Shown: in pieces, positions 28,271 through 43,953 of the stretch
Position numbering within the stretch: position 1 is the stretch's first letter
How the letters are laid out: the number at the start of each line of letters is the position of its first letter
NCBI GenBank assembly: GCA_902766595.1
Contig: CACXEJ010000130.1
Span: 1 to 51,946, forward strand
Source of the DNA: Ruminococcus flavefaciens
GTDB taxonomy: Bacteria > Bacillota > Clostridia > Oscillospirales > Ruminococcaceae
Direction: 5' to 3'
Length of the DNA stretch: 51,946 nt
Notes under the pieces: generated by a model
Seen by the model: the letters and a program-made list of their open reading frames with translations, nothing else
Told to the model about the DNA's origin: nothing
Database searches by the model: none
Position numbers and translations under genes: made by a program

Positions 28271-30013
28271 ATGAGAGAGAAAAATGCTCCCGGCAAAAAG
28301 AAGAGTATCATCGAAAGGACTCTGGACAGCCTTTCTGACCGCAATAAAGCCCCTATGGCAGCCTATGTTGTGCTCGCTGTATTGTACATCGTCTGCTCTG
28401 CGATCGTTACCCTTACCGCTGACAACGGTAATGCGCTGAAGATCGGCGGAGGAACTGTTGCGGTATACGCTTTCGCAGGCGTATTTTCTGCGCTTTCCAA
28501 TATTTTCATAATATTCATCGTCCTGTTCTACGGCAAGCTCGGCTTCCGGACGGCGATGGTGTTCCTTTGCGTACAGCTTCCTATGATAATATCCGGCATC
28601 TTTATCCGCGGAAACTACGCGAGCCTTCCCGGACTCGTTACTGATATATTCACTATCATAGCTATCATTATGCTGTACAAGAACAACGAGAGAGTTGACC
28701 GATATCAGCGTAAGCTCCGCGATCAGGCGGTAAACGATATGCTGACAAACCTCCCGAACCGCTTTGCCTGTTCAGAGCTGATAAACGACCTGATAAAGCA
28801 CGGCGAGAAGTTCACAGTCGTTTCGATAGACATCAACAACTTCAAGAGCATCAACGACACTATGGGCTTCAAAGCCGGAAACAGCGTTCTCATCGAGATA
28901 GCTTCAAGGTGGGAAACCATCGCGGACAGCGGTCTTTCGAGCACCCTCGACTTTATCACAAGAGTTGCCGGAGACGAGTTTGCGCTCATTATCCGCAATT
29001 ACCGTTCTGAGGACGACGTCGTGAAAACTATCAGGCAGTACGAGGCTGCACTCGGAAACCGGGTAACTGTTGACGACTGCGACATCTATATCACAGCGAG
29101 CTTCGGCTATGCTGAGTTCCCGACAGACGCGGATAACTTCGACAGCCTGTTCTCGTATTCCAATGCGGCTATGGCTGAGGTCAAGCGTCAGAACAGCAGC
29201 GACCATATCCTGCGCTTTTCGTCTGAGCTCCTTAAAGCCGGACGCACCCTCGAGATCGAGCACAAGATCAGAACTGCCCTCGATGAGGACACTATCTACT
29301 TCCAGCTTCAGCCGCAGTTCGACCTTTCCCACAAGCTCCGCGGCTTTGAGGCGCTTGCGCGTATCAAGGACTCTGAGGGCAACAACATCAGCCCCGGCGA
29401 GTTTATCCCGATAGCTGAAAAGGTCGGTCTTGTCGATAAGATAGACGGAGCTGTTTTCAGAAAATCTGCTGAATTCTTCGGCGAGCTCCTCAGAAAATCG
29501 CCGTCCTCCGATGTTACACTCAGCGTAAACGTCTCCGTAAGACACCTTATGAAGAACGACTTTGTTGAGGAGATACGCAGCATCGTCGAAAACAGCGGTG
29601 TTCCTGCCTCACAGCTTGAGATCGAGATCACCGAGTCGATAATGATAGACTCTGCCGACAAGGCTCTCCAGTGTATCAAGGAGCTCAAGAATATGGGTAT
29701 GAAGATCGCTATCGACGACTTCGGCACAGGCTATTCTTCACTGAGTTACCTCAATAAGTTCCCGGCAAACCTCCTCAAGATAGACAAGTCCTTCATCGAC
29801 AAGATGAACGCCAGCGACTCCTCAAAGAAGTATGTTGCAGCGATCATCTCTATCGGTCACATTATGAATTTCGATGTTATTTCCGAGGGTGTCGAGAAGG
29901 AGGAGCAGCTCGAAACTCTCCGCGAGATAGGCTGCGACTACATACAAGGCTATATCTGGGGACGTCCGCTCCCTACTGAGGACGCTGAAGCGCTCTATCT
30001 GAACGCTGTCTGA
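28271..30013 (+). CDS. Membrane GGDEF-EAL protein (c-di-GMP turnover)
   Basis: 580 residues. Four predicted N-terminal helices (about 30-50, 61-88, 92-113, 120-137) lead into a GGDEF domain (about 150-310) and an EAL domain (about 325-575). The GGDEF signature is AGDEF (233-237); Ala in the first position is often tolerated, so diguanylate cyclase activity is possible. The inhibitory I-site Arg is replaced by Ser (STLD before TRVAGDEF). The EAL domain keeps the metal and catalytic residues: EAL (359-361), SVNVS, EIEITES, IDDFGTGYSSL, LKIDKSF, SEGVEK and DYIQGY. It is probably a phosphodiesterase or bifunctional enzyme at the membrane. AAGGAGG precedes the ATG. It is convergent with another EAL gene. 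Confidence 0.94.
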   Translation: MREKNAPGKKKSIIERTLDSLSDRNKAPMAAYVVLAVLYIVCSAIVTLTADNGNALKIGGGTVAVYAFAGVFSALSNIFIIFIVLFYGKLGFRTAMVFLCVQLPMIISGIFIRGNYASLPGLVTDIFTIIAIIMLYKNNERVDRYQRKLRDQAVNDMLTNLPNRFACSELINDLIKHGEKFTVVSIDINNFKSINDTMGFKAGNSVLIEIASRWETIADSGLSSTLDFITRVAGDEFALIIRNYRSEDDVVKTIRQYEAALGNRVTVDDCDIYITASFGYAEFPTDADNFDSLFSYSNAAMAEVKRQNSSDHILRFSSELLKAGRTLEIEHKIRTALDEDTIYFQLQPQFDLSHKLRGFEALARIKDSEGNNISPGEFIPIAEKVGLVDKIDGAVFRKSAEFFGELLRKSPSSDVTLSVNVSVRHLMKNDFVEEIRSIVENSGVPASQLEIEITESIMIDSADKALQCIKELKNMGMKIAIDDFGTGYSSLSYLNKFPANLLKIDKSFIDKMNASDSSKKYVAAIISIGHIMNFDVISEGVEKEEQLETLREIGCDYIQGYIWGRPLPTEDAEALYLNAV

Positions 30014-30036
30014 TGTTCAGGCTTATCAATGAATAT

Positions 30037-30070
30037 GCAGGGCAAGGTTAATTCCTTGCCCTGCTTTTTT
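30037..30070 (+). terminator. Strong terminator between the two c-di-GMP genes
   Basis: GCAGGGCAAGG (30037-30047) with CCTTGCCCTGC (30054-30064), loop TTAATT, then six T. Confidence 0.95.
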
Positions 30071-30074
30071 GCTC

Positions 30075-33000
30075 TTATTTGTATTCGATAGTTACTGTAT
30101 GCTCGATCTCTTCACCGTTTATGATAACATTCAGTCTGCCGTTTTTGACAGTGAAGTTCTTATCGGAAGCGGAGGTCGCCTTGTTGAGTGCCGACCTGAC
30201 ATCAAGACGGGTATCTGAGTCGGTGAGCTGAATGAAGGTCTCTGCCTCATTGTATCCGCCCAGCGCAAGGGCTTCCTGACCGATAGCATCGAGCTTGAGG
30301 TGAGAGTCGCCGAGGTTGATCTCTGAGGCTCCGTAGAGCGCTCCGAAACAGGTGGAATTGTCCGCCATAATGTTCAGCACGAGACTGACCTGATCGGTCC
30401 GCACAACAGCCTTGCTGCCGCGGAGAGTTCCGAATACGACCATATACTTGTTGTGCGAGTAGAATTTCACCGAGCTCTTGTACAGGGAGATGTCCGCGTT
30501 ATTCTCGAGAGAGCCGATGAAGGTTCCGATGCTTGCAGCGCAGTCGGACTCAATGTGGCAGGTGGTTATCGCAAGCTCAGCTTCACCGGTGATAGCGCCT
30601 ATACCGACAGCTGTTTCGGTGTCGATATTGAGATTGTACTCGCCGCGGTTTATGTGTATCTCGCCGCCTCGTCCGGAGCCTATACATATAGTGCTCTTGC
30701 CGCGGCAGCTTATGGTTAAGAGACCGTCCTGTTCGAAGACCAGCTCGCCATGACGAGAGTGGTGATCGTTGCCGATGCCGTAGGACTCGGCTGCGTTGAG
30801 CTCGATGTTGAGAGCGCCGTCGCCTTCTATCACGAGCCTTGCTGACTCAGGGACCTGTATTCCGGCTTCAAACAGAGTGTTCGTGCCGACGAGAACGAGC
30901 GTGACGTTTGAATTCTCACCGAGCTCGATAGCAGGGCGGTTCTTGACGTTTGTGAAGTAAACGTCCTCGAGCGTGATGCGTCCCCTGTAACCGGGCTCGA
31001 CGCGCATATGCAGACCTGTTTTCATCTGCGGAGTTCCGATTATGGATATGTCCTTGTAGACCATTTCGTCGTGTCCGATGACTATGTCCGTACAGCCCTT
31101 CTTTTCGAGCTTTGCAAGCGGAACGCGGTTGGTCTTGCCGGCGATGTAGATGTGCTTGTTGTCGCCGTCGATGCGCTCCTGATGAAACTGCTTTATCTGA
31201 CTGCGACACTTTTCGTCTATCTGACGGATAACGTCAGCGGAAGGCTTTGCCGTGTAGAAACCCTGAATGAGGTCAGCGCCGAGGTGTATGACGGTCTGGA
31301 GCTCCTCCGCCGTCTCGACGCCCTCCGCAAGAGCCTTGATGCCGTTGTCATGGCAGAAATCTATGATCTCGCGGACGAAGTGCTGCTTCTGGGGGTATTC
31401 GTGGATATCGCTGAGGAGGGAGCGGTCTATCTTGACGAAATCCGGCATATAACGCAGGAGATTGCTCACGTTGGAGTAGCCCGTTCCGTAGTCGTCAACA
31501 GCGATGTTGATGTGCATTTTTTCAAAGTAGTCCTTCAGCTTTGTAAGCTCGGAGTCCTTCAGCTCGGCTTCCTCAGTGAGCTCAACGACCACTCTTTCAG
31601 CGTGGGCGGCAAGGTAATTGTCCAGCTCGTAGGCTGACTCTTCGCCGACGCTGACTCCGGGTATGCTGTTGATAAAGACTCTCGCCTCACCGAAGCGTTC
31701 CTCGTTCTGGTCGATATAGCTGAGAACGTTCAGGAAGGTAGCACGTTCAACATCGGAGAGACGTTCCTGCATAGCGGCGTACTTTATGATCGAGAGCGGC
31801 GATATCTTGTCCTTTGTGCGTGAGCGCATAAGGGCTTCATAGGCGTAAACACTGCCGTCAACGGCACTTACGATCGGCTGGAAATAGTAGTCGAGGAGGT
31901 TGTCGTCGAGTATCTTTGAAACGAGCTGATACTGGTTCTTTTCGGACGTATCAAGTGACTCATAGGCGTGGCTCGTCACCGTGAACTTGCTACTGCGGAA
32001 ATGCTCGAGCTGTTCCTGCATATGCATCATCTCGAGACTGCGTCTGAGCACCTCGAGCCCCGTGCTGACCGAGCTTATCCAGCGGCGGTAAATATCGTCG
32101 TAGCTGCGCAGCTTGCTGCCGTAGCTGACTGCGGCATATCCGAAGCAGTTGTTCTCAAAGAATACCGGCGTGAAGAAGTAGGCGGTCGGGAAGTTGCTGT
32201 CGTCGTAGAGCTCCGGCAGCATATCTGCTGTATCGAAAAGCTCGTCTGTGCCGGCGATATTGCTCCGGCGGTCGCTGCAATAGCGTATCGCGTGTATCAT
32301 CTTCTTCGGGTAGCCGGAATTTTTAATGTGAGCGACCTGACCGCTGTTCTTCCATTCGCCTGCGAGGCAGAGGTGGAATTCCTCCGCACCGCGTATCTGA
32401 TAGGCGTAGGAGTAGACTGTGTCGAGGTAATCCTGAAGCGAGGTCTGCGAGATAAGGCTTTCTTTCATCGTGCTGAATACGGAATCGTAGCCCTCTTCGG
32501 AAATATCCGTGCCCCAGTGCTGGCGTTTTATGTGGTGGACGGGCATAGTTCCGGTTTTACAGCCGCAGCTCTCACCGATGAGGAGCTTGGATCTCAGCCT
32601 GAATGATTCCGGAACTTTTCCGTTTATTTTGTCTGAGAGAAATCTGAATGTATACTCGCCGAATTCCTCGGCAGGTATGAGTGCGGACGTTATAGAGCAC
32701 GGGCTCGTCTGTCCCTCAAATGTCGAATCATAGCCGATAACGGCGATATCCTCCGGCACCTTTATGCCGCGTTCTTCAAAAGCCCGGCAGAGTCCTATCG
32801 CCATCTGGTCGTTTGCACAGGCAACGGCGTCCGGCAGCTTCTTTCCGTCCGCGAGGAGTTCCTCAGCGCACAGCTCACCGCTCTGATACCAGAAATCACC
32901 GTAGATTATGCGTTCCTCGGACACCGGCAGCCCTGCCTTAGCCATAGCGTCACGGTAAGCCTGAAGCCGCTCCTTGGAGTGCTTGTGCCACTTCTTGCCT

Positions 33001-33422
33001 GATAGAAAGGCGATGTCGCGGCAGCCGTGGACTTCGATGAGGTGGGTGACGAGTTCAAAGACGTCGGAGTAGCAGTCGGTGCAGATACTGGGGAAGAGGT
33101 CGCTCTCCTTTTCAATGACCACAATGGGCTTGTCGAAGATGTCCTTGAGGCGGAGCTCGAGCTTTTCAGCCGCATCTTTGGTCTGTATGCTGTCCTTGAG
33201 GATTATCGCGCCGTCAAATTTATCCGGTGCCATAAGACTGAAAATATTGGACTCGCCCTGTTCGCGCTCCGGAGTATCCTGATATTTACGGTACATTGAG
33301 AATATACATACATCATATCCGCCGGCAAAGGCATTTTTCAGAAAGCCGCTGATGAAACGGCTCTGGTAGGACTCATCAGCCTGTCCGACAAATAGAGCTA
33401 TTCGCTTTCTATGATCCTTCAT
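30075..33422 (-). CDS. Cytosolic LacI-type sensor / GAF-like / EAL / beta-helix fusion protein
   Basis: 1115 residues without signal peptide or membrane helix. Residues about 5-285 form a LacI/PBP1-type sugar-binding domain (RIALFVGQAD, FDGAIILKD, HGCRDIAFLSG, AVACANDQMAIGLCRAFEERG, VPEDIAVIGYD) but with no LacI DNA-binding helix, ending in a Cys motif GESCGC. Residues about 300-465 resemble a GAF-like region (YFFTPVFFENNCFGYAAVSYG). Residues about 500-740 are an EAL domain with all catalytic positions: YEALMR, FINS, ELTEEAE, VDDYGTGYSN, VKIDRS, EGVET, DLIQGFY. Residues about 755-1115 form a repetitive beta-helix-like domain (IGSGRGGEIHINRGEYNL and similar) like those of extracellular carbohydrate-binding proteins. 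I infer a c-di-GMP phosphodiesterase gated by an intracellular sugar. Own promoter; paralogous sensor at 37851-40034. Confidence 0.9.
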   Translation of the reverse strand: MKDHRKRIALFVGQADESYQSRFISGFLKNAFAGGYDVCIFSMYRKYQDTPEREQGESNIFSLMAPDKFDGAIILKDSIQTKDAAEKLELRLKDIFDKPIVVIEKESDLFPSICTDCYSDVFELVTHLIEVHGCRDIAFLSGKKWHKHSKERLQAYRDAMAKAGLPVSEERIIYGDFWYQSGELCAEELLADGKKLPDAVACANDQMAIGLCRAFEERGIKVPEDIAVIGYDSTFEGQTSPCSITSALIPAEEFGEYTFRFLSDKINGKVPESFRLRSKLLIGESCGCKTGTMPVHHIKRQHWGTDISEEGYDSVFSTMKESLISQTSLQDYLDTVYSYAYQIRGAEEFHLCLAGEWKNSGQVAHIKNSGYPKKMIHAIRYCSDRRSNIAGTDELFDTADMLPELYDDSNFPTAYFFTPVFFENNCFGYAAVSYGSKLRSYDDIYRRWISSVSTGLEVLRRSLEMMHMQEQLEHFRSSKFTVTSHAYESLDTSEKNQYQLVSKILDDNLLDYYFQPIVSAVDGSVYAYEALMRSRTKDKISPLSIIKYAAMQERLSDVERATFLNVLSYIDQNEERFGEARVFINSIPGVSVGEESAYELDNYLAAHAERVVVELTEEAELKDSELTKLKDYFEKMHINIAVDDYGTGYSNVSNLLRYMPDFVKIDRSLLSDIHEYPQKQHFVREIIDFCHDNGIKALAEGVETAEELQTVIHLGADLIQGFYTAKPSADVIRQIDEKCRSQIKQFHQERIDGDNKHIYIAGKTNRVPLAKLEKKGCTDIVIGHDEMVYKDISIIGTPQMKTGLHMRVEPGYRGRITLEDVYFTNVKNRPAIELGENSNVTLVLVGTNTLFEAGIQVPESARLVIEGDGALNIELNAAESYGIGNDHHSRHGELVFEQDGLLTISCRGKSTICIGSGRGGEIHINRGEYNLNIDTETAVGIGAITGEAELAITTCHIESDCAASIGTFIGSLENNADISLYKSSVKFYSHNKYMVVFGTLRGSKAVVRTDQVSLVLNIMADNSTCFGALYGASEINLGDSHLKLDAIGQEALALGGYNEAETFIQLTDSDTRLDVRSALNKATSASDKNFTVKNGRLNVIINGEEIEHTVTIEYK

Positions 33423-33498
33423 TGTATCCCTTCCTTTGAACGGGTAATAAATTCGATTCTTGAAATGCTGCTGGTGTGATCACAATTAACCATAATAT

Positions 33499-33527
33499 AT
33501 TATATCATAAGTGTACATATATTTCAA
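33499..33527 (-). promoter_or_regulatory. Promoter of the LacI-EAL fusion gene
   Basis: Minus-strand TTGAAA (33522-33527), 17 bases, TATAAT (33499-33504) with an extended TGA. Confidence 0.8.
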
Positions 33528-33717
33528 GTAAAACTATTGTATATGTTAAAACGATAAACCTTTCGTGACTGCCAAAATGGCAGGTAATGGAAATGCTGAA
33601 TAAAGAAGTATATGCGCATTTACCGTGGCAAGCCTTTATGAGGAAAGGTTTCGCCAACAGCGCCGTTCCCCCTTTTCAAAAACTTTATTTTCGTTTTTGC
33701 CGTGATAGTACAAATTT

Positions 33718-33748
33718 AGCGCTACTAATTTTAGTAGCGCTTTGTTTC
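33718..33748 (+). terminator. Orphan terminator-like hairpin
   Basis: Perfect 10-bp stem AGCGCTACTA (33718-33727) with TAGTAGCGCT (33732-33741), loop ATTT, followed by TTGTTTCTT. No upstream plus-strand gene is recognised. Confidence 0.6.
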
Positions 33749-33908
33749 TTGAAACAGTGTACTGTCACAGTAAAAAACAGATAAGGTATTAGGAAGAGAG
33801 TTTGAGAGCGACTCCCCACAGTGTGGGAAATTGTCCGCAAAACAGAAGGGACGCGCTGCCGTCAGCGGAACCCTTTTTTCAAAAGGGTTTCCTCAACAAT
33901 CCGTATGT

Positions 33909-33945
33909 TACTTCTATATTGGTATCGCCTTTAAGATGCAGCAGC
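33909..33945 (-). repeat. 3'-end repeat, copy B (after the YfhO gene)
   Basis: Starts TACTTCTATATTG and ends with the ATGCAGCAGCT type motif, matching copy A at 20361-20398 with scattered substitutions. It directly abuts the stop codon of the YfhO gene. Confidence 0.6.
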
Positions 33946-36624
33946 TCACTTCACGAACAGAGACAGGATATTTCCTAATATCGGAGCTGCACAGAGGATA
34001 ATAAGTGCTCCGATCGAAACTGCATAGAAGCAGACATAGGCAAAACCGTTGAACGCCTTGACTCCGCATATATCCATTCCCTTTTTTCTGAGCAGCATAA
34101 CAACCGCGAACAGAATGAGTCCGGCTATGCTTATTACCACGCTTATCCAGAAGCTGTACGGTACAAATCTCATCTTTATCTCTGCGTCCTCACTGCCGAG
34201 CTTTATAGCCGTGAACGCTCCTCCGAGCACCGGGGTGATCTCCGTCTTGGTGCCGTTTACCTCAGCACGCCAGTTCTTGTTATACTCTATCGGCAGGAAT
34301 ACATATCTGTCCTGCGGATCATCGACCTTCAGCGAAAGCTTATAGCCGCCGGCTTCAACATCGTAAGCGTGGGGAGCTTCCGAAGCAGACTTGCAAAGCT
34401 TATCGAGCTTTTCGAGATCCATAACACCGATGAGCAGTTTGTCAGTACGCTTGTTCTTGGAGTTTACAGAAATACTCACCTTCTCGCCGCTGAATATTCC
34501 AAGGAATGCACAGCCGGTGAGGTTAGAGCGCGGATAAACATTATCATCTTCATTTTCATAGGGAAGGCTCGCCGGTTCTCCGTTGACATTCAGGGCGAAA
34601 ATATCGCTCTTTGAAGAGGTATAGATATACACTGCCGACTCCTTGTCAACGTTGAATTCACCGGAGTAACGGTAGGGCATAAACATATTGCCGTTCATCT
34701 CGTTATCATCGGCGGTAACTATGTCCATATAAGTGAATGTGGTGAACAGATCCTCGCTGTCGCCGGAAAGTGCCTTGTAAATACGGTTCTGATAGCTGAA
34801 CGGACTTTCGTGAGTACGGCTGTCGAGTTCAGTCAGCTCATCACCGGCAAGAATTCCAAACGGGAGAGTATAATTACAGTCATAGATATGGAAGTATTTT
34901 GAGTCCTTTGAAAAGGTATAGAGGCTGTTAGCGCTCTCAATGTGCGAATAGACCTTCTTAACGTTGAGAAGAGCGTCAGAAAAAGCCGTTCCGCCGGTAT
35001 CCATCGTGTAGGTGTAGTTCGAGTCATAACCCAGAGCTCTCATTTCTTCAAGATAGTTCTTGGATATATTGAGAGTCCAGTCGCTGATGCCGGGAACTCC
35101 TGACAAAAGGGGCAGATTGACATTTGTATCCATCATATTGAGCATCTTGAAACGCGACAGCTTTCTGTCCTCCATATCAGCGGACTGCCGTATATCCTTG
35201 GCAGTATAGGACAGCGAGAGAGAACCCTCAGCATCAGGAGCCACAAGAGCATAGCTGCCCAGAAGTGCCTGAACGGCAGCGATCGAAACGAGGAGCACTG
35301 TCCGGAACTTCTTCTCGCAGAACCCGAATAATATGAAGCATGAAGCCGTTGACGCTATGAAAATATATTTATGGAGAACGTAAGTCTCTTTGTCCTCAAT
35401 GCCGGTGTCCTTCATCTGTATAGCCATTACAGTTATTATTATAGCCGAAGTAGCTGCTGTAATTAGAGACGCATATTCAAGCACACTTTTCAGCTTCTTC
35501 TTTTCGACTTTGAAGAGAGGCTTTTCACCTCTGAGACTTGCAAAATATGCCGCGATGTCGCAGCAGACGAAAGCAAGTATGAAGCCGAAGCGATACGGGA
35601 AATGAACATACGAGCCGCCGTGCCAGAGAAGATTTGAGCCCTCACAGAATACCGGTATCATCAGCACAACAAGCAGATAAACGAAGAATATGCTCTGCTT
35701 ATCGAGCTTTTTGCCGTCCTTTTTGCTGCGTATGATATGTGCAAGAAGGGCAGCTATTCCGGCTTCGCAGCCAAAGAGCATAAAACGTTTCTGGTAATCA
35801 AAATCGCCGGTTCTCGTAAACAGTATCTCATCGAACGTTTTGTTATATCCCGCTCTTGGAGAGTCCAGAAGCTTCAGCGTACCCGGTATCATCATATAAG
35901 CTGCAATAATGTATGACAACAGCGTGAAGATACCGAGCTGAGCGGCTGCTCTGCGGCACTTTGCCCTGTCCTCCGATATAAAGAACATATGCCCGAAAGA
36001 GTAGAATATCACGAATACATAGACCATAAAGCTGAGGTAACCGTTCAGTATGAAGCAGAGCAGAGTCATAACGGTATAGCCAAGGAATTTTCCCTCGTTC
36101 AGCAGCGCCTTCAGTGCGAGCATCAGCAGCGGGAAAAGTATCATAATGTCCATAAAGAAGATGTTCATATAGTTCTGGACCATAAAGCCGCAGTAGGTAT
36201 AGAACAGCGAAAACGCGACATTCATAACTGCACCGCAGCGGTAGGTCTTTTTCATATAGACCGACATCGTCAGTGCTGAGAGCATCAGCTTCAGCGCGAG
36301 GAAAATGCCCATAAACTGGAACAGATCATCTCGTTTCACGAAGAACAGAAAAACGTTCATCGGATTGAGTCCGTATGTCGTATAGTTTGAAAGGCAGTCG
36401 CAGGAAGCACCGTTGTACCAGTCGAAGAAGAGCGGTGCCTTGCCGTGGAGGAATTCGTGAGCGTGGGTGTATTCAGGAATATACTGAGGTCCCATATCGT
36501 AAAAGGCTATACTGCCGTTTCCGAAAGGGTAAACTCCCTTCAGCATATAGACTATGAATAGTATTGCGAGTGCCGCAAGCGGAGCTATGAGGTACTCTTT
36601 ATTGCGTTTGATACGATCCATCAT
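33946..36624 (-). CDS. YfhO-family polytopic membrane protein
   Basis: 892 residues with about 13 hydrophobic segments, mostly in the first 470 residues, then a large extracytoplasmic region (about 490-840) and a last pair of helices. The N-terminal pattern (GVYPFGNGSIAFYDMGPQYIPEY, then FFDWYNGAS and NPMNVFLFF) is typical of the YfhO family. These are GT-C-like proteins linked in Bacillus to lipid-carrier-dependent glycosylation of wall polymers. Here it follows a WecE-type aminosugar gene by 61 bases, supporting a role in moving or attaching a modified sugar at the cell surface. AAGGAG precedes two tandem ATGs (36624, 36621); either may be used. Confidence 0.88.
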   Translation of the reverse strand: MMDRIKRNKEYLIAPLAALAILFIVYMLKGVYPFGNGSIAFYDMGPQYIPEYTHAHEFLHGKAPLFFDWYNGASCDCLSNYTTYGLNPMNVFLFFVKRDDLFQFMGIFLALKLMLSALTMSVYMKKTYRCGAVMNVAFSLFYTYCGFMVQNYMNIFFMDIMILFPLLMLALKALLNEGKFLGYTVMTLLCFILNGYLSFMVYVFVIFYSFGHMFFISEDRAKCRRAAAQLGIFTLLSYIIAAYMMIPGTLKLLDSPRAGYNKTFDEILFTRTGDFDYQKRFMLFGCEAGIAALLAHIIRSKKDGKKLDKQSIFFVYLLVVLMIPVFCEGSNLLWHGGSYVHFPYRFGFILAFVCCDIAAYFASLRGEKPLFKVEKKKLKSVLEYASLITAATSAIIITVMAIQMKDTGIEDKETYVLHKYIFIASTASCFILFGFCEKKFRTVLLVSIAAVQALLGSYALVAPDAEGSLSLSYTAKDIRQSADMEDRKLSRFKMLNMMDTNVNLPLLSGVPGISDWTLNISKNYLEEMRALGYDSNYTYTMDTGGTAFSDALLNVKKVYSHIESANSLYTFSKDSKYFHIYDCNYTLPFGILAGDELTELDSRTHESPFSYQNRIYKALSGDSEDLFTTFTYMDIVTADDNEMNGNMFMPYRYSGEFNVDKESAVYIYTSSKSDIFALNVNGEPASLPYENEDDNVYPRSNLTGCAFLGIFSGEKVSISVNSKNKRTDKLLIGVMDLEKLDKLCKSASEAPHAYDVEAGGYKLSLKVDDPQDRYVFLPIEYNKNWRAEVNGTKTEITPVLGGAFTAIKLGSEDAEIKMRFVPYSFWISVVISIAGLILFAVVMLLRKKGMDICGVKAFNGFAYVCFYAVSIGALIILCAAPILGNILSLFVK

Positions 36625-36685
36625 TATCTCCTTAACAAAGGGTAATATTAATCAGGCTGTCAGCCCGGAAGCAGCTGCTTTCAGG

Positions 36686-37816
36686 TCAGCAGCCGAAAAA
36701 TGCAAGCGCTATCTCGATGACCTTTGCCCTGTCCTCTGGCGTGAGACCGAAGTACATCGGTAGCCTTACAAGACGGTCGCTCTCGCGGGTAGTATACTCG
36801 TCTATGCCGTTGAAGCGTCCGTACTTTCTTCCGGCAGGAGCTGAATGGAGCGGTACATAGTGGAATACCGCACATACGCCGTTATTCTTCATATGGTCGA
36901 TGAAGCGTGTGCGCTCTTCGAGGTCGCGGAGCTTTATGTAGAAGCAGTGAGCGTTGTGGACGCAGTAATCCGGCACCTTCTGGAGCTCGATGATCCCCTG
37001 CTCCTCAAGCGGCTTGAACGCTTTGAGGTAGTCGTTGTAGGTGGTCATACGGTCATTGTAGATCTCGTCTGCGTGCATAAGCTGGGCATAGAGATAAGCG
37101 GCATTTATGTCGCTCGCAAGATAGCTGTCTCCGATGTCCACCCAAGTATACTTATCCACCTCTCCGCGGAAGAACTTCGAGCGGTTCGTACCCTTTTCGC
37201 GGAGTATCTCAGCGCGTTCCATATAGGCGTCATTGTTGACGAGGATAGCGCCTCCCTCACCCATCGAGTAGTTTTTGGTCTCGTGGAATGAATAGCAGCC
37301 GAAATCGCCGATCGTTCCGAGAGAACGTCCCTTGTAGCTGCTCATAACGCCCTGAGCTGCGTCCTCTATGACGAGGAGATTATAGCGGCGGGCAATATCC
37401 ATTATCGTGTCCATCTCACAGGCAACTCCTGCGTAGTGAACGGCTACGATAGCGCGTGTATGCTTGGTTATGGCAGCCTCTATCTTGTTCTCATCGAGGT
37501 TCATAGTATCGGGGCGTATATCCGAAAATACGAGCGAAGCGCCGCCGAGTATCATAGAGGTAGCAGTGCTCGAAAACGTAAAGCTGGGGAGTATTACCTC
37601 GTCACCGGGCTTGAAGCCGCTGAGTATCGAGGACATATCGAGCGCACTGGTACAGCTCGTCGTGAGGAGGAGCTTCTGCGCGCCGAAGCGCTTTTCGAGC
37701 CACTCGGTACAGAGCTTGGTGAATTTTCCGTCGCCGGAGATCTTGTGTGAGAATACCGACTGCTTTATGTATTCGAGTTCATCGCCTGTAAAGGGCGGAA
37801 TATTGAATGGTATCAT
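36686..37816 (-). CDS. wecE: dTDP-4-amino-4,6-dideoxygalactose transaminase (WecE/RffA-like)
   Basis: 376-residue PLP aminotransferase of the DegT/DnrJ/EryC1 family. It probably converts dTDP-4-keto-6-deoxyglucose to dTDP-4-amino-4,6-dideoxygalactose with glutamate. WecE-like features: the start MIPFNIPPFTGDELEYI, SCTSALDMSSIL, PSFTFSSTA, EDAAQG and the PLP Lys in SFHETKNYSMGEGGA (K181). No other dTDP-sugar genes are in the window, so its partner enzymes lie elsewhere. AAGGAG precedes the ATG. It sits between the AraC-type sensor (34 bases upstream) and YfhO, probably one operon, suggesting that a sugar signal adjusts a surface glycan. Confidence 0.9.
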   Translation of the reverse strand: MIPFNIPPFTGDELEYIKQSVFSHKISGDGKFTKLCTEWLEKRFGAQKLLLTTSCTSALDMSSILSGFKPGDEVILPSFTFSSTATSMILGGASLVFSDIRPDTMNLDENKIEAAITKHTRAIVAVHYAGVACEMDTIMDIARRYNLLVIEDAAQGVMSSYKGRSLGTIGDFGCYSFHETKNYSMGEGGAILVNNDAYMERAEILREKGTNRSKFFRGEVDKYTWVDIGDSYLASDINAAYLYAQLMHADEIYNDRMTTYNDYLKAFKPLEEQGIIELQKVPDYCVHNAHCFYIKLRDLEERTRFIDHMKNNGVCAVFHYVPLHSAPAGRKYGRFNGIDEYTTRESDRLVRLPMYFGLTPEDRAKVIEIALAFFGC

Positions 37817-37850
37817 AATAAACTCCTTTATATATGTGTATGCTGCCGCG

Positions 37851-40034
37851 TCAGCTCTTCAGCAGGCTCCGGTAGCGTACCGGAGTCATACCGACAGCGG
37901 AATTGAACTGGCGCAGGAAGTATTTGCTGTCGAGGTAGCCGCATTTTTCGGATATTTCCATAATGCTCATCGTGCTTGTGACGAGCTGGTACTTAGCCTT
38001 TGCAATTCGGGCATTTATGCAGTCCTTATGGAAGCTCAGCCCGAAGCACTGCTTGTAGACGCTGCGGAAATAGCCTGTGCTTCCGGAAAAGCGTTCGTGG
38101 AGCGAAGGCGTGTCGAAGGTGGAGGCAGGCTCCATAAAGATGTAGTCGCGCATCTCGGACATCTCGCGGTAGTGGTTGAGAAGGCGCTTTGCAGACAGGT
38201 CGAGCATCAGTTTTTCAGCCTTATCGCTGCATCTGCCGAGCACCTCGCGGTATGTGCCGTCACCGCACTTTTCAGCGGTACACACAAATGAGCCCGCACC
38301 GAAGCTCTCCATATACTTCCTGTGCTGGAGAAGTATGGAGACAAGCGAATCTGCAAGGAGCTCCGGCTCTGCACTGCTCTGAACGAGGCAGACAAAGGTA
38401 TTCGGGTTTATCATTGCGGAAATATCGTGGTTGCCGCAGAATTTTCCGACAGCCTTTGAAGCGTCGAGAACGGCATTTATACGGGTATCGCTCTCTATCT
38501 CGGAGACTGTCTCATCGAACAGGCATATTTTCAGCATAACGAGGCAGAGCTCCTTGCCGCTTCGCGGAGAAGCCGAACGGTAAGCCTTTTCCATACCGTT
38601 GTCATTGTACATACCGGTGAGGGTATCGCGCTGCGAGGAGAGGTTCTGGCACTTGCTGAGGTACTGTATATCGTTTTTCATACGCAGCAGCTCGAGACCG
38701 TTGCAGACGGTCTTGTTCCAGTTGCGGAAGATGTCGTCGTAGGTATCGGGAACGTCGTAGCGTATGACGGTCGAGCCGAAATATTTCTCGCCGAAAAACA
38801 GGGGCGTGAAGTAATAGACGGAGGGCTCGTCAAACTTTGCCGGCAGCACCGAGAATTCCATACGGCTCATCTCGAAGGTATCACCTGTCTCCTGACCAGC
38901 TATATCCCGGCAGACCATATTGTCCGAGTTGTGCATCTCGGAGTCGTACCAGTCTGCATTGAGACATATAAAAATGTCCTTGGCGTCCCTGATGAGCCAT
39001 TGCTGCCTGCCGAGAGCCTGAGCGAATTCATCGAGATTGCGGCTGTTTGTGAGGTCCTTGTCGAGCGGACTGAAGAGGTTCCAGTCCTGAAAATCACTCC
39101 TCAGCTTCTGCGCATCGAGCTCGCTGATGTACTGCTCGCGGCAGCGTCCGCAGGGACAGCTGTCTCCGGGTACGAGAGAACCTCCGGGCGGGCTGAAATC
39201 CCCGAAATTGCCGGTAGTGAGCTTGTCGTGGAGCATACGCACGGCAGCTTTTCCGAGGGCTGAACGGCTTCGGCGGTAGGTAGTGAGAAGAGGGGTATAG
39301 AGAATTCTGCGGTCGATGTACTCATAGCCGGTGACGATGATCTGACCGGGCACCGAGATATCATTGCGCGCAAACTCGTCGAGCATACCGTAAGCCATAT
39401 AGTCGTTGCCGCATACGACAGCCTGCGGCATATGCAGCTCGCCGCTGATGTACTTCTTTGCGAGTTCCTGACCGGAAATCATCCAGAAGTCGCCGAAATG
39501 TATCTTGCTCTCGTCAACCGGGATATTGTGCTGGCGGAGAGCCTGCCTGTAGCCGTCAGCTCTGAGGTGCGAGACCTCGATATGGTCCTGTCCTGTGAGC
39601 ATATCAATGTCTGTGCAGCCGTGGACATCGATGAGGTGCGAGGTAATATCGACAAAATCGTTTTTGTCGTTGGTATTGATGAAGCGGGCTCCGGGCAGGT
39701 CGAAAATTTTCTGGTAGGTGCCCACAACAATGATCGGTACTCTCTTTTTCTGACTGAGGAGGTCAGCGATCCTGCGCTTGAGAGCATCGTTGACGAAGGA
39801 TTCGGCGATGAGTATCACCGCACTTATATCGTCTGAGAGGATATATTCGTAGATATGGTTTTCACACAGGAGTTCTTCATAGAGAACATTCGGGTTGAAA
39901 ACATTTGAAAACACGGCGGTGTCGTAGCCTAACTGCTGTGCCTGTCCGATAATCCCCTCGAGTATCTGTCTCTGTTCGATACTGTTGGCTTCCGCAGCCA
40001 TAACACCAAGTATCGGTCGGACTGGTCTTAACAT
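37851..40034 (-). CDS. LacI-type sensor / GAF-like / degenerate GGDEF / AraC transcription factor
   Basis: 727 residues, cytosolic. About 8-290 is a LacI/PBP1-type domain without its own DNA-binding helix (RPILGVMAAEAN, HGCTDIDMLTGQDHIEVSHLRADGY, AVVCGNDYMAYGMLDEFARN, VPGQIIVTGYE), ending in GDSCPCGRC. About 310-475 repeats the GAF-like region of the EAL fusion (YYFTPLFFGEKYFGSTVIRYD, then YDDIFRNWNKTVCNGLELLR). About 480-610 starts like a GGDEF domain (RDTLTGMYNDNGMEKAY), but the signature site is replaced (INPNTFVCLV), so no cyclase activity is expected. About 625-727 is an AraC helix-turn-helix (IMEISEKCGYLDSKYFLRQFNSAVGMTPVRYR). It is divergent from the GH30-CE1 gene and upstream of wecE and yfhO, the likely targets. 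Confidence 0.9.
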   Translation of the reverse strand: MLRPVRPILGVMAAEANSIEQRQILEGIIGQAQQLGYDTAVFSNVFNPNVLYEELLCENHIYEYILSDDISAVILIAESFVNDALKRRIADLLSQKKRVPIIVVGTYQKIFDLPGARFINTNDKNDFVDITSHLIDVHGCTDIDMLTGQDHIEVSHLRADGYRQALRQHNIPVDESKIHFGDFWMISGQELAKKYISGELHMPQAVVCGNDYMAYGMLDEFARNDISVPGQIIVTGYEYIDRRILYTPLLTTYRRSRSALGKAAVRMLHDKLTTGNFGDFSPPGGSLVPGDSCPCGRCREQYISELDAQKLRSDFQDWNLFSPLDKDLTNSRNLDEFAQALGRQQWLIRDAKDIFICLNADWYDSEMHNSDNMVCRDIAGQETGDTFEMSRMEFSVLPAKFDEPSVYYFTPLFFGEKYFGSTVIRYDVPDTYDDIFRNWNKTVCNGLELLRMKNDIQYLSKCQNLSSQRDTLTGMYNDNGMEKAYRSASPRSGKELCLVMLKICLFDETVSEIESDTRINAVLDASKAVGKFCGNHDISAMINPNTFVCLVQSSAEPELLADSLVSILLQHRKYMESFGAGSFVCTAEKCGDGTYREVLGRCSDKAEKLMLDLSAKRLLNHYREMSEMRDYIFMEPASTFDTPSLHERFSGSTGYFRSVYKQCFGLSFHKDCINARIAKAKYQLVTSTMSIMEISEKCGYLDSKYFLRQFNSAVGMTPVRYRSLLKS

Positions 40035-40079
40035 TATTTACGCCTCCGTAAATTTATTTGGATCAGAATATCTATTATA

Positions 40080-40108
40080 ATTATAGAATAAAATTCCACA
40101 TATGTCAA
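40080..40108 (-). promoter_or_regulatory. Promoter of the LacI-AraC sensor gene
   Basis: Minus-strand TTGACA (40103-40108), 17 bases, TATAAT (40080-40085). GGAGG lies 9 bases before the ATG at 40034. Confidence 0.85.
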
Positions 40109-40161
40109 CAGAAACAAGCATATTTTTCTTTTATTTGTCCACCTGATATTCACATTGTGGG

Positions 40162-40190
40162 TTTACAAGTGGCAAATATTAATATATAAT
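40162..40190 (+). promoter_or_regulatory. Promoter of the GH30-CE1 gene
   Basis: TTTACA (40162-40167), 17 bases, TATAAT (40185-40190). The two divergent -35 boxes are about 54 bases apart, room for one shared AraC-type binding site. Confidence 0.8.
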
Positions 40191-40288
40191 GAACAAGGAT
40201 AAAAGTGTACTCTGGTCAATTTTGGGCTAAGTACAGTCGTTATCATTAAAAAAGCACAAAACAAATAACATAAGGGGGTAATCCTACA

Positions 40289-43225
40289 ATGAAGATCACA
40301 CACAAGATCAGATCTGCATTCGCTGGTATTGTTGCAGGTGCAATGATGTTCTCAGTTGCTTCCGCAATGCCGGCTGTCTCTCCTGAAGAGAGTTTCGACG
40401 CAAATGCTGCCGGTGCCTGTACTATCAACACCAGTAAGCTATATCAGTCTATTGACGGCTTCGGCGGTATCAATCACCCCGAGTGGTACGGCGACCTCAC
40501 TGATGCTGACCGAAAGATCGCTTTCGGAAACGGTAACGGAGAACTCGGCTGTTCTATCCTTCGTATCTTCGTAAATCCCGATAAGAGCCAGTGGAGCAAA
40601 GCTCTTCCGACTGCTCAGTATGCTACCAAGAACGGCATCACGGTATTTGCATCGCCGTGGGAGCCGCCGTCGAACCTCGCTGAAAACGGCTCTGCTTACG
40701 GCGGTAAGCTCCACCTCCCGAAGAAGAATTACGGCGCTTATGCTGAGCACCTTAACGACTTCGGTAAATATATGAAGAACAACGGCGTTGACCTTTACAG
40801 CGTTTCAGTTCAGAATGAGCCCGACTACGCTAAGGAGTGGACAGCATGGACGCCGGACGAGACTACCGACTTCATCGCTAACTACGGCGATAAGATCACG
40901 AGCACAAGGCTTATGTCGCCTGAGTCATTCCAGTACGGTGCATGGGGCAACGGCAAGGACTACTACACAAAGATCCTCAACAACGCAAAGGCTTATGCAA
41001 ACTGTGACTTGTTCGGAACTCACTTCTACGGAACTCCCAGAAGCAAGATGGACTTCCCCGCTCTCGAAAACTGCGGCAAGAAGCTCTGGATGACTGAGGT
41101 CTATGTTCCGGACAGCAGCGTTGATGCTAATAAGTGGCCCGATAACCTCGAACAGGCTGTCAATATCCACGATGCACTCGTTGTCGGAGGTATGCAGGCT
41201 TACGTTGTATGGCCTCTCCGCCGTAATTACAGCATCATCTATGAGTCAACACACTCCATTTCAAAGCGCGGATACATCTTCGGTCAGTTCTCCAAGTACA
41301 TCCGTCCCGGCGACTACCGCATCGACGCAACTGAACAGCCTAACACAAATATACTCGTTTCCGCTTACAAGCACAGTGATACCCAGATCGAGGTAGTTGC
41401 CATAAACAAGGGCACGAGCGAGGTAACACAGCAGTTCAACGTAAGCAGCAGAAATATCAAGAATGTTGACCGTTACAGAACATCAGGCAGCGAGAACCTC
41501 GCAGCTACTAAGGGTATGGAAGCAAACGGTTCGTCATTCTACTCACAGCTCCCAGCACAGAGTGTTTCCACATACATCATCACCCTTGAGAGCGACGGAG
41601 CAGAAGTCCCCACATCAGGTGAGGATCCCACATACGAGCCTCCTACGACACCCGGTCCTATCGAGCCCGACGCTAACGGCTACTACTTCCACGATACATT
41701 CGAGGGAAGCAATTGTGACTGGGAAGGCAGAGGTTCTGCAACAGTTACACTCAGCGGCAGACAGCCCTATGCAGACAAGGAAGCTCTCCTCGTTCAGGAC
41801 AGAGCTGCAACGTGGAACGGTGCTCAGAAGGTACTCGATGAAAACACCTTCAAGGCTGGCGAGTCTTACAGCTTCAGCGTGAACGCGACTTACCTCGACG
41901 GTTCAGCAGCTTCTACCAAGATGATGCTCTCGCTCCAGTATAAGGACTCAGAAGGCACTACCTGCTACGGACATATCGCTGAAGGAACTACGGTTGCCGG
42001 AAAGTATGTCCAGCTCGCAAATACCAGCTACAAGATACCCGACGGCGCTACCGACCTAATTCTCTACGTTGAGACAGCAGAGGGCTCAACTACCGACAAC
42101 TTCTACATCGACGAAGCTATCGTTGCTGTTAAGGGCACAAAAATAGACGGTCCTGCCGAAACAAAGTTCGCTTACGGCGATGTGACATTCGACGGCAAGA
42201 TCAACGTTTTCGACGTTATTGCTGCAAGACGCGGTCTCACAAACGGCTTCACAGACTCCGCTGCAGAGCGCGCTGCCGACGTTGACCAGAGCGGCAAGGT
42301 CGAGATCGCTGACGTAGTTCAGATCTCCAATTTCGTGCTCGGCAGAATTACAAAGTTTGAAGTTACTGCTCCTCCCAAGTCTGAGTATGTATACAACTCC
42401 GCAGTTTCCTTCAAGGCTGCTCCGGATAAGTACTTCGAGGCTATCAGCAGCGACAAGGCTGGCAAGATAGTTCAGGAAAACTACACAGGTATCAACGGTG
42501 CAAAGACAATGTACGTTTACCTCCCCAACGGCTACGACTCAAGCAAGAAGTACAACGTATTCTACCTTATGCACGGCGGCGGAGAGAACGAGAAGACCTG
42601 CTTCTACGACAACTCCACCCACATCGGCAATATGCTCGACCATATGATCGCTAACGGCGAGCTCGAACCTATGATCGTTGTTACACCTACTTTCAACAAC
42701 TGCCCGAACGTTGACGGCAACGGCGGTGCTGCAACAGTATGGGACGAGATGCGCAAAACTATCATCCCCTACATCGAGGGCAAGTATTCAACATACGCAG
42801 CTTCGACCTCTGAGGCTGACCTCAAGGCTTCAAGATATCACCGTGCATACGGCGGCTTCTCAATGGGCGGCGGTTCCACATGGAATATGATGATAAACAA
42901 CCTCGATGTCTGCGCATACTATATGCCTCTCTCAGGTCACTGCTGGGCAGGCGCAACAGGTATCCAGAACGCTATCGACAAGTTTGGTCTCAAGCCCAAT
43001 GAGTACTTCGTATTCGCAGCAACAGGCGACAAGGACATTGCATATGGCAACCTCTCAGGTCTCTGCAATTCCCTCAAGGCTGATACACAGCGCTTCAAGT
43101 ACACTTCTGACTTCTCCAAGGGCAACTTCTACTACCTCGTTGCTTCCGGAAAAGACCACTACTGGGGCAATGTAAGACACTACATCTACGATGCACTTCC
43201 CTCATTCTTCCACGAGGGACAGTAA
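40289..43225 (+). CDS. Cellulosomal xylan-degrading enzyme: GH30-CBM22-dockerin-CE1
   Basis: 978-residue secreted multidomain enzyme. A signal peptide (AGIVAGAMMFSVASA) is followed by a GH30 domain (about 45-435) with acid/base Glu in VQNEP (E177) and nucleophile Glu in WMTEVYV (E270). A Pro/Thr-rich linker (about 440-465) and a CBM22-like beta-sandwich (about 466-615) come next. A type I dockerin (about 626-688) has two Ca-binding repeats (YGDVTFDGKINVFDVIAARR and VDQSGKVEIADVVQISNFVLGR). The C-terminal CE1/feruloyl-esterase-type domain (about 695-978) has nucleophile Ser in GGFSMGGG (S858) and a catalytic His in GKDHYWG (H957). It probably cuts xylan and removes its ester groups while docked on a cellulosome. 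AGGGGG precedes the ATG. Confidence 0.94.
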   Translation: MKITHKIRSAFAGIVAGAMMFSVASAMPAVSPEESFDANAAGACTINTSKLYQSIDGFGGINHPEWYGDLTDADRKIAFGNGNGELGCSILRIFVNPDKSQWSKALPTAQYATKNGITVFASPWEPPSNLAENGSAYGGKLHLPKKNYGAYAEHLNDFGKYMKNNGVDLYSVSVQNEPDYAKEWTAWTPDETTDFIANYGDKITSTRLMSPESFQYGAWGNGKDYYTKILNNAKAYANCDLFGTHFYGTPRSKMDFPALENCGKKLWMTEVYVPDSSVDANKWPDNLEQAVNIHDALVVGGMQAYVVWPLRRNYSIIYESTHSISKRGYIFGQFSKYIRPGDYRIDATEQPNTNILVSAYKHSDTQIEVVAINKGTSEVTQQFNVSSRNIKNVDRYRTSGSENLAATKGMEANGSSFYSQLPAQSVSTYIITLESDGAEVPTSGEDPTYEPPTTPGPIEPDANGYYFHDTFEGSNCDWEGRGSATVTLSGRQPYADKEALLVQDRAATWNGAQKVLDENTFKAGESYSFSVNATYLDGSAASTKMMLSLQYKDSEGTTCYGHIAEGTTVAGKYVQLANTSYKIPDGATDLILYVETAEGSTTDNFYIDEAIVAVKGTKIDGPAETKFAYGDVTFDGKINVFDVIAARRGLTNGFTDSAAERAADVDQSGKVEIADVVQISNFVLGRITKFEVTAPPKSEYVYNSAVSFKAAPDKYFEAISSDKAGKIVQENYTGINGAKTMYVYLPNGYDSSKKYNVFYLMHGGGENEKTCFYDNSTHIGNMLDHMIANGELEPMIVVTPTFNNCPNVDGNGGAATVWDEMRKTIIPYIEGKYSTYAASTSEADLKASRYHRAYGGFSMGGGSTWNMMINNLDVCAYYMPLSGHCWAGATGIQNAIDKFGLKPNEYFVFAATGDKDIAYGNLSGLCNSLKADTQRFKYTSDFSKGNFYYLVASGKDHYWGNVRHYIYDALPSFFHEGQ

Positions 43226-43431: not shown

Positions 43432-43464
43432 AAATAAGTATTGTTATTTCAGGAGAATGATAAA

Positions 43465-43950
43465 ATGGAACTCGAGATAACCAACAGAATATTAAAAAAC
43501 AGAAACTATATCGCCCAGCTCAGCTTGCTAAAGGAGCTCGAGACTGACCGCGAATTCTGCCGTCACGATATGGACCACTTCCTCAGCGTTGCACGGATAA
43601 CTATGCATATGTGCCGGGAAATGGGCGTAAGAGCCGACCGCGACCTCGTTTACGCAGCGGCTCTCCTCCACGACATCGGCAGGACTCAGGAGATGACTAT
43701 GGGCATTCCGCACGATTTAGCCGGTCAGGCTTTAGCGGACTGCATTCTCAGCGAGGTGAACTGCCCCGAGGATATGAAGTCGCGGATAATCGGTCTCATT
43801 GCCGCTCACAGGGACATCACCAAAGCCGGTGACGAGCTCGGAAGGATATTCTGTGCAGCTGACAAGAAGTCGCGCAAGTGCTTCGACTGTCCCGTCCTTG
43901 AACGCTGCAACTGGCCGGACGATAAAAAAAATCTTTACATAGAGGTGTAA
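43465..43950 (+). CDS. HD-domain phosphohydrolase in the folate operon
   Basis: 161 residues. HD-superfamily metal ligands are visible in CRHDMDHFLSVARI and in ALLHDIGR, with further His in MGIPHDLAG and IAAHRDI. The C-terminus carries a Cys cluster (CFDCPVLERC). Such proteins hydrolyse phosphate esters or nucleotides. AGGAGA lies 8 bases before the ATG at 43465; the frame extends to a TTG at 43441 without a ribosome site. It is the first gene of the operon, 3 bases before folP, so a role in folate synthesis such as dephosphorylating a pterin intermediate is possible but not shown. Confidence 0.85.
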   Translation: MELEITNRILKNRNYIAQLSLLKELETDREFCRHDMDHFLSVARITMHMCREMGVRADRDLVYAAALLHDIGRTQEMTMGIPHDLAGQALADCILSEVNCPEDMKSRIIGLIAAHRDITKAGDELGRIFCAADKKSRKCFDCPVLERCNWPDDKKNLYIEV

Positions 43951-43953
43951 GTT

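What the first reader, a model, noticed from the sequence alone, without database searches (positions are those of the whole stretch)
28271..43225. Candidate carbohydrate-to-c-di-GMP/surface-glycan control module
Within 15 kb lie a membrane GGDEF-EAL protein, the LacI-EAL fusion, a paralogous LacI-GAF-AraC factor, a WecE aminosugar enzyme, YfhO, and a dockerin-bearing xylanase/esterase divergent from the AraC factor. The two sensors share the same front half, including a terminal SCxC motif, but have different outputs (c-di-GMP hydrolysis versus transcription). I infer that one sugar signal is split into an enzymatic and a transcriptional branch acting on surface glycan and cellulosome enzyme synthesis.
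Basis: inference. Interest (0 to 1): 0.75.

Follow-up and report, generated by a model that had tools for sequence, protein, structure and literature searches.

The report
Fibre-enzyme regulator and its operator
The 15-kb stretch of this fibre-degrading gut bacterium holds two separate control systems rather than one module; one is a sugar-sensor transcription factor that, by sequence evidence, probably reads a shared DNA signal in front of many secreted plant-fibre-digesting enzymes, which would give a testable handle on how these bacteria switch fibre digestion on.

Summary
In the window and 10 of 10 orthologues of at least 55% identity it is divergent from a GH30/CBM/esterase gene. The region between holds a conserved element, TTTTGTCCAC[CT]-N11-TTnTGnGTT[GT]A, overlapping the -35; all 46 fetched sites have a -10 about 19 nt downstream. 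In 60 genus genomes it has 128 hits (reversed control 7); in 146 genomes outside the genus 10 (control 12). It precedes secreted glycosidase and esterase genes (17 of 20 scanned), clusters beside LacI-AraC homologues, and occurs in 33 of 33 genomes with a homologue of at least 38%. This is a candidate operator of a fibre-degradation regulon. (2) LacI-EAL is a separate predicted c-di-GMP phosphodiesterase ending in an unreported intracellular beta-solenoid, next to a GGDEF gene at 10 of 14 loci. No such site lies before it, WecE or YfhO. SCxC is family-wide; 'one sugar, two branches' is unsupported, though G015 and G022 have a 43% LacI-AraC nearby. Binding, ligand and sign of control are inferred.

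The parts
37851..40034 (-). LacI-type sugar-binding (PBP) - GAF-like - degenerate GGDEF - AraC HTH regulator (P0003)
   Evidence: ORF; Pfam; degenerate GGDEF; model pLDDT 87.6
39156..40034 (-). PBP half of the regulator, no LacI DNA-binding domain found
   Evidence: PF13377, PF00532; Foldseek to LacI, RbsR, CcpA cores
38730..39137 (-). GAF-like region (label tentative)
   Evidence: weak GAF_2 in 14 of 33 relatives; secondary structure
38187..38633 (-). degenerate GGDEF domain, signature replaced by NPNTF (consensus NDNTF in relatives)
   Evidence: PF00990 in 18 of 33 relatives, best E 5.9e-9, not in P0003 itself; hhalign 96.4%
37857..38108 (-). AraC-type HTH
   Evidence: PF12833 6.5e-12
40133..40165 (+). 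conserved operator-like element ATTTGTCCACC-N11-TTGTGGGTTTA
40162..40167 (+). -35 (TTTACA), overlapping the right end of the element
40185..40190 (+). -10 TATAAT, 17-nt spacer from the -35
40289..43225 (+). secreted GH30 xylanase-like - CBM - dockerin - esterase, proposed target gene
   Evidence: XynC model 456.9 bits, under its 650 cut-off
36686..37816 (-). WecE-type dTDP-4-amino-4,6-dideoxygalactose transaminase, 34 nt after the regulator gene
   Evidence: 4 of 60 genus genomes
33946..36624 (-). YfhO membrane protein
   Evidence: PF09586 1e-99
30075..33422 (-). PBP - GAF-like - EAL - beta-solenoid protein (P0002), separate system
31242..31910 (-). EAL domain with the catalytic residues kept
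30093..31151 (-). C-terminal beta-solenoid, no Pfam or NCBIfam family
   Evidence: model pLDDT about 95 over most of it
28271..30013 (+). GGDEF(AGDEF)-EAL protein with hydrophobic N-terminus (seen by eye), convergent neighbour of LacI-EAL
   Evidence: homologues beside LacI-EAL in G008, G022, G033

Best explanation
Two separate systems lie side by side. System A: the regulator 37851-40034 binds a plant-cell-wall sugar through its PBP half (inferred). The PBP, GAF-like and catalytically dead GGDEF parts act as a sensory and dimerising front (inferred). Its AraC domain binds TTTTGTCCAC[CT]-N11-TTnTGnGTT[GT]A, which overlaps the -35 of its targets (element shown by sequence; its assignment to this protein rests on adjacency and co-occurrence). 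In this 82%-complete genome three genes carry the element at up to two mismatches: the divergent GH30-esterase gene, a CBM gene cut by its contig end (probably CBM22-GH10, by likeness to those of relatives) and a GH5 gene. Activation is more likely than repression (about 65:35, from AraC family habit, recalled). System B: LacI-EAL is a sugar-responsive c-di-GMP phosphodiesterase (inferred) tied to an intracellular beta-solenoid and often next to a GGDEF gene. Of the three c-di-GMP effector types I searched (PilZ, MshEN, c-di-GMP-I riboswitch) only MshEN, a domain of pilus-type ATPases, is present in this genome, so pili are the likeliest output (inferred). WecE-YfhO is a passenger downstream of the regulator, seen so far only here and in G058.
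For: The regulator is divergent from a GH30/CBM/esterase gene in 10 of 10 fetched orthologues of at least 55% identity plus the window; in G058 the gene lacks the GH30 domain, in others it is cut by a contig end. The element is recognisable in all 12 aligned intergenic regions, weaker in L082 and L068. 128 hits in 60 genus genomes against 7 for the reversed pattern; outside the genus 10 hits in 146 genomes against 12 controls. 46 of 46 fetched sites have a TATAAT-like hexamer at +18 to +20, 40 at +19, although the -10 was not in the pattern. Of 20 downstream ORFs scanned (my choice from 46 loci, most GH30 orthologues left out), 17 have GH, CBM or esterase domains. 33 of 128 sites lie within 1 kb of a LacI-AraC homologue: 11 of 11 genes at 55-100%, 14 of 37 at 38-54%, 4 of 16 at 33-37%, 0 of 30 at 26-31%. 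All 33 genomes with a homologue of at least 38% have the element, 7 of 27 others do (Fisher 2e-10). A GGDEF gene is next to LacI-EAL at 10 of 14 loci, 0.77 expected. EAL residues kept. PilZ 0 of 15, MshEN 14 of 15, c-di-GMP-I 1 of 15 genomes.
Against: No binding or expression data. The pattern was drawn partly from sites beside the regulator, so the 55-100% class is circular; of the 14 genes at 38-54% with a site, G015 and G024 also fed the pattern, leaving 12 independent. Shared ancestry is not controlled in the Fisher and Poisson tests. Seven genomes without a homologue of at least 38% still have sites (G017 has four, with a best homologue of 26%), so another regulator may read the element. 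23 of 37 genes of the 38-54% class have no site within 1 kb. The -35 and -10 are near consensus, which would also suit a repressor. Of the 20 ORFs, two (signal peptidase L159; no family L172) are not fibre enzymes and L178 has only BNR- and sortilin-type matches. The GGDEF neighbour of the window itself has AGDEF and four of 14 LacI-EAL loci show no GGDEF neighbour.
Confidence: 0.72

Rival explanations
1. One reading: one sugar is sensed by two paralogous sensors that split the signal into c-di-GMP hydrolysis and transcription, jointly controlling surface glycan and cellulosome enzymes as one module.
For: Both sensors share the PBP-GAF-like front. In 2 of 13 other genomes a 43% LacI-AraC lies within 10 kb of LacI-EAL, against 0.17 expected; G022 even has the order GGDEF-EAL, LacI-EAL, LacI-AraC with the last two on one strand, as in the window.
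Against: Where a 55-62% orthologue exists beside LacI-EAL in a genome (five genomes), it is on another contig. A D/E difference at a pocket position. One operator site above 10 bits in the window. WecE in 4 of 60 genomes. The same front half is carried by at least four other proteins of this genome.
Confidence: 0.08
2. The element is bound by a different regulator (another AraC-type or CcpA-like protein), and the LacI-AraC gene is itself only a neighbour or target.
For: Seven genomes without a close homologue have the element; several other AraC-domain genes exist in the genome.
Against: 0 of 30 genes of the 26-31% class have a site within 1 kb, against 29 of 64 genes at 33% or more; co-occurrence 33 of 33; sites sit just downstream or upstream of the regulator in several genomes.
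Confidence: 0.15
3. The regulator is a repressor that blocks the -35 and is released by sugar.
For: The element overlaps the -35, and both hexamers approach the sigma-70 consensus with a 17-nt spacer; LacI-type cores often serve repressors (recalled).
Against: AraC-type HTH proteins, XylR included, are mostly activators that bind next to the -35 (recalled).
Confidence: 0.25
4. The element is only an extended sigma-70 promoter or UP element shared by strong secreted-enzyme promoters, with no dedicated regulator.
For: Fixed spacing to the -10.
Against: The left half TTTTGTCCAC is no promoter element that I know of; genus-restricted; linked to one regulator class.
Confidence: 0.05

Closest known systems
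E. coli XylR-type regulators (PBP1-like sugar domain fused to AraC HTH; architecture recalled)
   Same: LacI-type PBP without LacI DNA-binding domain, C-terminal AraC HTH, pentose- or xylan-related targets likely; PF22177 PBP1_XylR matches 6 of 33 relatives at E up to 1
   Different: About 350 residues (GAF-like and degenerate GGDEF) lie between the two; no PF22177 match for the window's own protein at E up to 1; proposed targets are secreted depolymerases
PBP-GGDEF proteins of the same genome (G000:C68, C72, C41)
   Same: Same front half with SCxC motif, GGDEF at the same place
   Different: They keep GGDEF and lack the AraC domain; in P0003 the motif is NPNTF
EAL phosphodiesterases such as BlrP1 (PDB 3gfx)
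   Same: EAL domain, catalytic residues kept
   Different: PBP/GAF-like sensor and C-terminal beta-solenoid
Cthe_2159 carbohydrate-binding beta-helix (PF14262)
   Same: Beta-solenoid; a secreted distant homologue (L109) scores 24.0 bits, just under the 25.8 cut-off
   Different: The EAL-linked solenoid itself has no match and lies in a protein without an evident signal peptide (by eye)

Membership tests
XylR-type PBP-AraC regulator | LacI-type PBP domain without LacI DNA-binding domain | tested here: met
   PF13377 and PF00532 in 33 of 33
XylR-type PBP-AraC regulator | C-terminal AraC HTH | tested here: met
   HTH_18 in 33 of 33
XylR-type PBP-AraC regulator | PBP1_XylR domain model (PF22177) | tested here: inconclusive
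   6 of 33 relatives at E up to 1, best 0.0094, not P0003
XylR-type PBP-AraC regulator | HTH joined directly to PBP | tested here: not met
   GAF-like and degenerate GGDEF region between
XylR-type PBP-AraC regulator | binds xylose | not testable with these tools
   no assay
Diguanylate cyclase (GGDEF), for the middle of P0003 | homology to the GGDEF domain | tested here: met
   hhalign 96.4%, E 1.4e-9 against five templates, in register at the motif; PBP control 0.3%; 63.6% with two templates
Diguanylate cyclase (GGDEF), for the middle of P0003 | GG(D/E)EF active-site motif | tested here: not met
   NPNTF in P0003, consensus NDNTF in relatives
EAL c-di-GMP phosphodiesterase (LacI-EAL) | catalytic and metal residues | tested here: met
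   aligned with BlrP1, kept by eye; residue roles recalled
EAL c-di-GMP phosphodiesterase (LacI-EAL) | hydrolyses c-di-GMP | not testable with these tools
   no assay
Cthe_2159 beta-helix family (solenoid) | PF14262 match | tested here: not met
   pieces of the order recur in G058, G022 and G015

The most novel reading that the evidence does not exclude
The regulator reads two inputs: a plant sugar through the PBP half and a nucleotide (c-di-GMP or GTP) through the degenerate GGDEF fold. The c-di-GMP pool set by LacI-EAL and the 27 GGDEF-domain matches of the genome would then gate the fibre-degradation regulon, linking attachment (MshEN pilus-type ATPase) to enzyme synthesis.
Probability: 0.08. 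Interest if true: 0.85.

Novelty: new variant of a known kind. Interest (0 to 1): 0.6.

Why it matters
How Ruminococcus flavefaciens and its kin switch their fibre-degrading enzymes on and off did not show up as a solved question in the titles and abstract openings that I saw; subscription papers are not held. A single, genus-restricted promoter element with a nominated regulator turns this into a direct test with one purified protein and a handful of promoters, and allows a candidate regulon to be listed from sequence in each sequenced member. The regulator also suggests how a PBP-GGDEF protein can become a transcription factor by loss of the active-site motif and gain of an AraC domain. Separately, the EAL-beta-solenoid fusion is in at least 58 of 60 genus genomes and its solenoid has no named Pfam or NCBIfam family.

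Tried and rejected
The single-module idea was tested by synteny and dropped; on re-checking the calls I found that G022 shares side and strand with the window, so I raised that rival from 0.06 to 0.08. Rfam on the window: nothing at gathering scores. c-di-GMP-I riboswitch: 1 of 15 genomes, not this one; c-di-GMP-II was not searched. PilZ: 0 of 15. Plasmid tblastn with LacI-EAL: capped at 5000 records, 20 shown, best place covers 51% in two pieces, none covers 80%. Solved structures for the solenoid: one chance-level hit at E 0.69. Foldseek on both models showed only LacI-type and EAL structures in the 50 rows listed, so it says nothing on the solenoid, GAF-like or GGDEF parts. The second structural aligner was not available. 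A first hhalign run with two GGDEF templates gave 63.6% and was repeated with five. The shuffled-window control did not complete (the script stopped on a shuffled window without any hit above 0 bits); I use only its real-window result, and the matrix includes the window's own site. Paper searches were seen as listings only; none of the rows listed was about these proteins, but one search listed 15 of 638 papers. PMC3672088 was seen as passages.

Full report
Observation. The two 'LacI' proteins show no LacI DNA-binding domain. The AraC factor carries a degenerate GGDEF domain. LacI-EAL ends in a long beta-solenoid. The shared front half is 29% identical, and its [ST]CxC motif is in 27 of 27 front-half rows of A1 and 33 of 33 rows of A2, LacI-GGDEF proteins included. 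The motif is therefore a family mark. The genome (2.47 Mb, 82% complete, 145 contigs) belongs with Ruminococcus: of 15 loci of named genomes that encode a relative of the solenoid, 13 are titled Ruminococcus, 7 of them R. flavefaciens.

Neighbourhood. I searched 60 genus genomes with LacI-EAL and with LacI-AraC, fetched 13 LacI-EAL and 20 LacI-AraC neighbourhoods of up to 20 kb and mapped 37 window proteins on them. Full LacI-EAL relatives are in 14 of 60 genomes, the window's own included, one in two pieces and one with a stop codon in the match. Five of the other 13 genomes carry a 55-62% LacI-AraC orthologue, in each on another contig. In all 10 fetched LacI-AraC orthologues of 55% or more, the divergent neighbour is a GH30/CBM/esterase gene; in G058 it lacks the GH30 part, and in some it is cut by a contig end. 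Of the 20 fetched loci, WecE and YfhO follow the regulator only in G058; WecE itself is in 4 of 60 genomes at E up to 1e-60. The 10 fetched loci of the 46-50% class have other neighbours, a ROK-type kinase gene in 5 of them (name by eye). Against this separation: in G015 and G022 a 43% LacI-AraC lies within 10 kb of LacI-EAL, 0.17 expected, P about 0.013. In G022 the order and strands of LacI-EAL and LacI-AraC match the window and a GGDEF-EAL gene flanks LacI-EAL; in G015 the regulator is on the other side.

The operator. The intergenic regions of the window and 11 loci align at TTTTGTCCACC-N10-CATTGTGGGTTTAC. It is weaker in L082 and L068, and a first matrix also hit the promoter of a GH30 gene in G035 (L079) without an adjacent regulator, and sites flanking the regulator in other genomes. 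A generalised pattern with up to two mismatches gives 128 hits in 40 of 60 genus genomes, against 7 for the same pattern read backwards, and 10 hits in 146 genomes of the order outside the genus, against 12 controls. In all 46 fetched sites (of the 128) a TATAAT-like hexamer starts 18 to 20 nt after the pattern, 40 of them at 19, although the pattern does not contain it. The right end of the element is thus the -35 with a spacer of about 17 nt. 42 of 46 sites have an ORF of at least 100 codons starting within 400 nt downstream; some of these ORFs look spurious. Of 20 ORFs that I chose for scanning, mostly leaving out GH30 orthologues, 17 have glycosidase, carbohydrate-binding or esterase domains (GH5, GH10, GH30, GH43, GH127, GH2, GH141, esterase-dockerin); the other three are a signal peptidase (L159), one without a family (L172) and one with BNR- and sortilin-type matches (L178). 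In the window a 63-column matrix made from the 46 sites, the window's own included, finds one site above 10 bits, at 40130-40192 with 61.6 bits, and none before LacI-EAL, YfhO, WecE or GGDEF-EAL. The genome's two other sites precede a CBM gene cut by its contig end and a GH5 gene.

Which protein binds it. I compared the 128 sites with 94 LacI-AraC rows copied from the upper part of the listing; the listing is itself capped, and one short partial row of that part (G004:C14, no site on its contig) was left out. 33 sites lie within 1 kb of a gene of 33% identity or more: 11 of 11 genes at 55-100%, 14 of 37 at 38-54%, 4 of 16 at 33-37%. None of 30 genes at 26-31% has one. The density of sites gives 0.0016 per 2 kb. 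All 33 genomes with a homologue of at least 38% have a site; 7 of the other 27 do (Fisher 2e-10). Limits: the pattern was learnt partly from sites beside the regulator, so the top class is circular, while 12 of the 14 genes in the second class did not feed it. Relatedness of genomes is not corrected. The seven exceptions, and the 23 of 37 genes without a nearby site, mean the assignment is probable, not shown.

The regulator's build. AlphaFold2 on 33 sequences gives mean pLDDT 87.6 and pTM 0.63. Foldseek aligns the front with LacI, RbsR and CcpA cores. The region around residues 466-640 matches PF00990 in 18 of 33 relatives at E up to 1, best 5.9e-9 (the call does not name that member; the 26%-identical paralogue L002, whose GGDEF match is over the Pfam cut-off, is among the 33), though not in P0003 itself. 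It aligns with five GGDEF domains at 96.4% probability, in register at the motif, where P0003 has NPNTF and the consensus NDNTF; a slice of the PBP domain as control gives 0.3%. By eye no RxxD inhibition site (motif recalled) stands before it, which speaks against c-di-GMP binding. The GAF label rests on weak matches only. At the position GY[D/E], 12 of 12 LacI-EAL rows have D; of 33 LacI-AraC rows 26 have E, one has D (the paralogue L002) and six were not read. That this residue contacts sugar is recalled from LacI, not tested.

LacI-EAL. The EAL part aligns with BlrP1 with the catalytic residues in place (roles recalled). A GGDEF gene is the neighbour at 9 of 13 fetched loci (LacI-GGDEF at six, GGDEF-EAL at three) and in the window, where the motif is AGDEF; none was found at the other four, one of them a short contig. 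10 of 14 compares with 0.77 expected from this genome's density of GGDEF domains, a crude estimate. The model has mean pLDDT 86.3 and pTM 0.46, with the solenoid at about 95 (37 sequences); the solenoid has no Pfam or NCBIfam family. EAL-solenoid fusions are in at least 58 of 60 genus genomes, counted by hand from the capped listing, four of them fragments; 9 of 197 order genomes match the solenoid, the window's included, one of the nine through a secreted protein. Of three effector types searched in 15 genomes, PilZ was in none, MshEN in 14 including this one, the c-di-GMP-I riboswitch in one. In R. flavefaciens 007C a protein with a type IV pilin N-terminus is reported among those most strongly raised on Avicel compared with cellobiose (PMC3672088, passages), so pili are a reasonable but unproven target.

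Verdict. The 'one sugar, two branches, one module' reading is not supported, though pieces of the neighbourhood recur.

Noticed in passing
L212 4860-7655 (G000:C109): The genus-wide EAL-solenoid protein of about 930 residues sits in a housekeeping locus: beside a YchF-type GTPase gene in 8 of 8 sampled loci and after HD-domain, DnaG and sigma-70 genes in 6 of 8 (clusters by blastp; Pfam run on L212 only).
   Followed up: partly
L109 (G249), secreted protein: The one hit to the solenoid outside the family in 197 order genomes is a secreted protein with a near-threshold Cthe_2159 match, a hint that the intracellular solenoid came from a surface carbohydrate-binding beta-helix.
   Followed up: partly
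28271-30013: Homologues of GGDEF-EAL next to LacI-EAL in G008, G022 and G033 have a different, soluble-looking N-terminus (by eye) in place of the hydrophobic one: a sensor swap.
   Followed up: no
L081 10935-12572 (G058): The divergent gene of the nearest relative lacks the GH30 part and keeps the CBM-dockerin-esterase part, while the operator matches without mismatch.
   Followed up: no
43441-45586: HD-domain, FolP and FolB/FolK genes flank LacI-EAL in G019 and G050 but the GH30 or esterase gene in the window and G058, so this locus is a rearrangement point (Fol names by eye).
   Followed up: no
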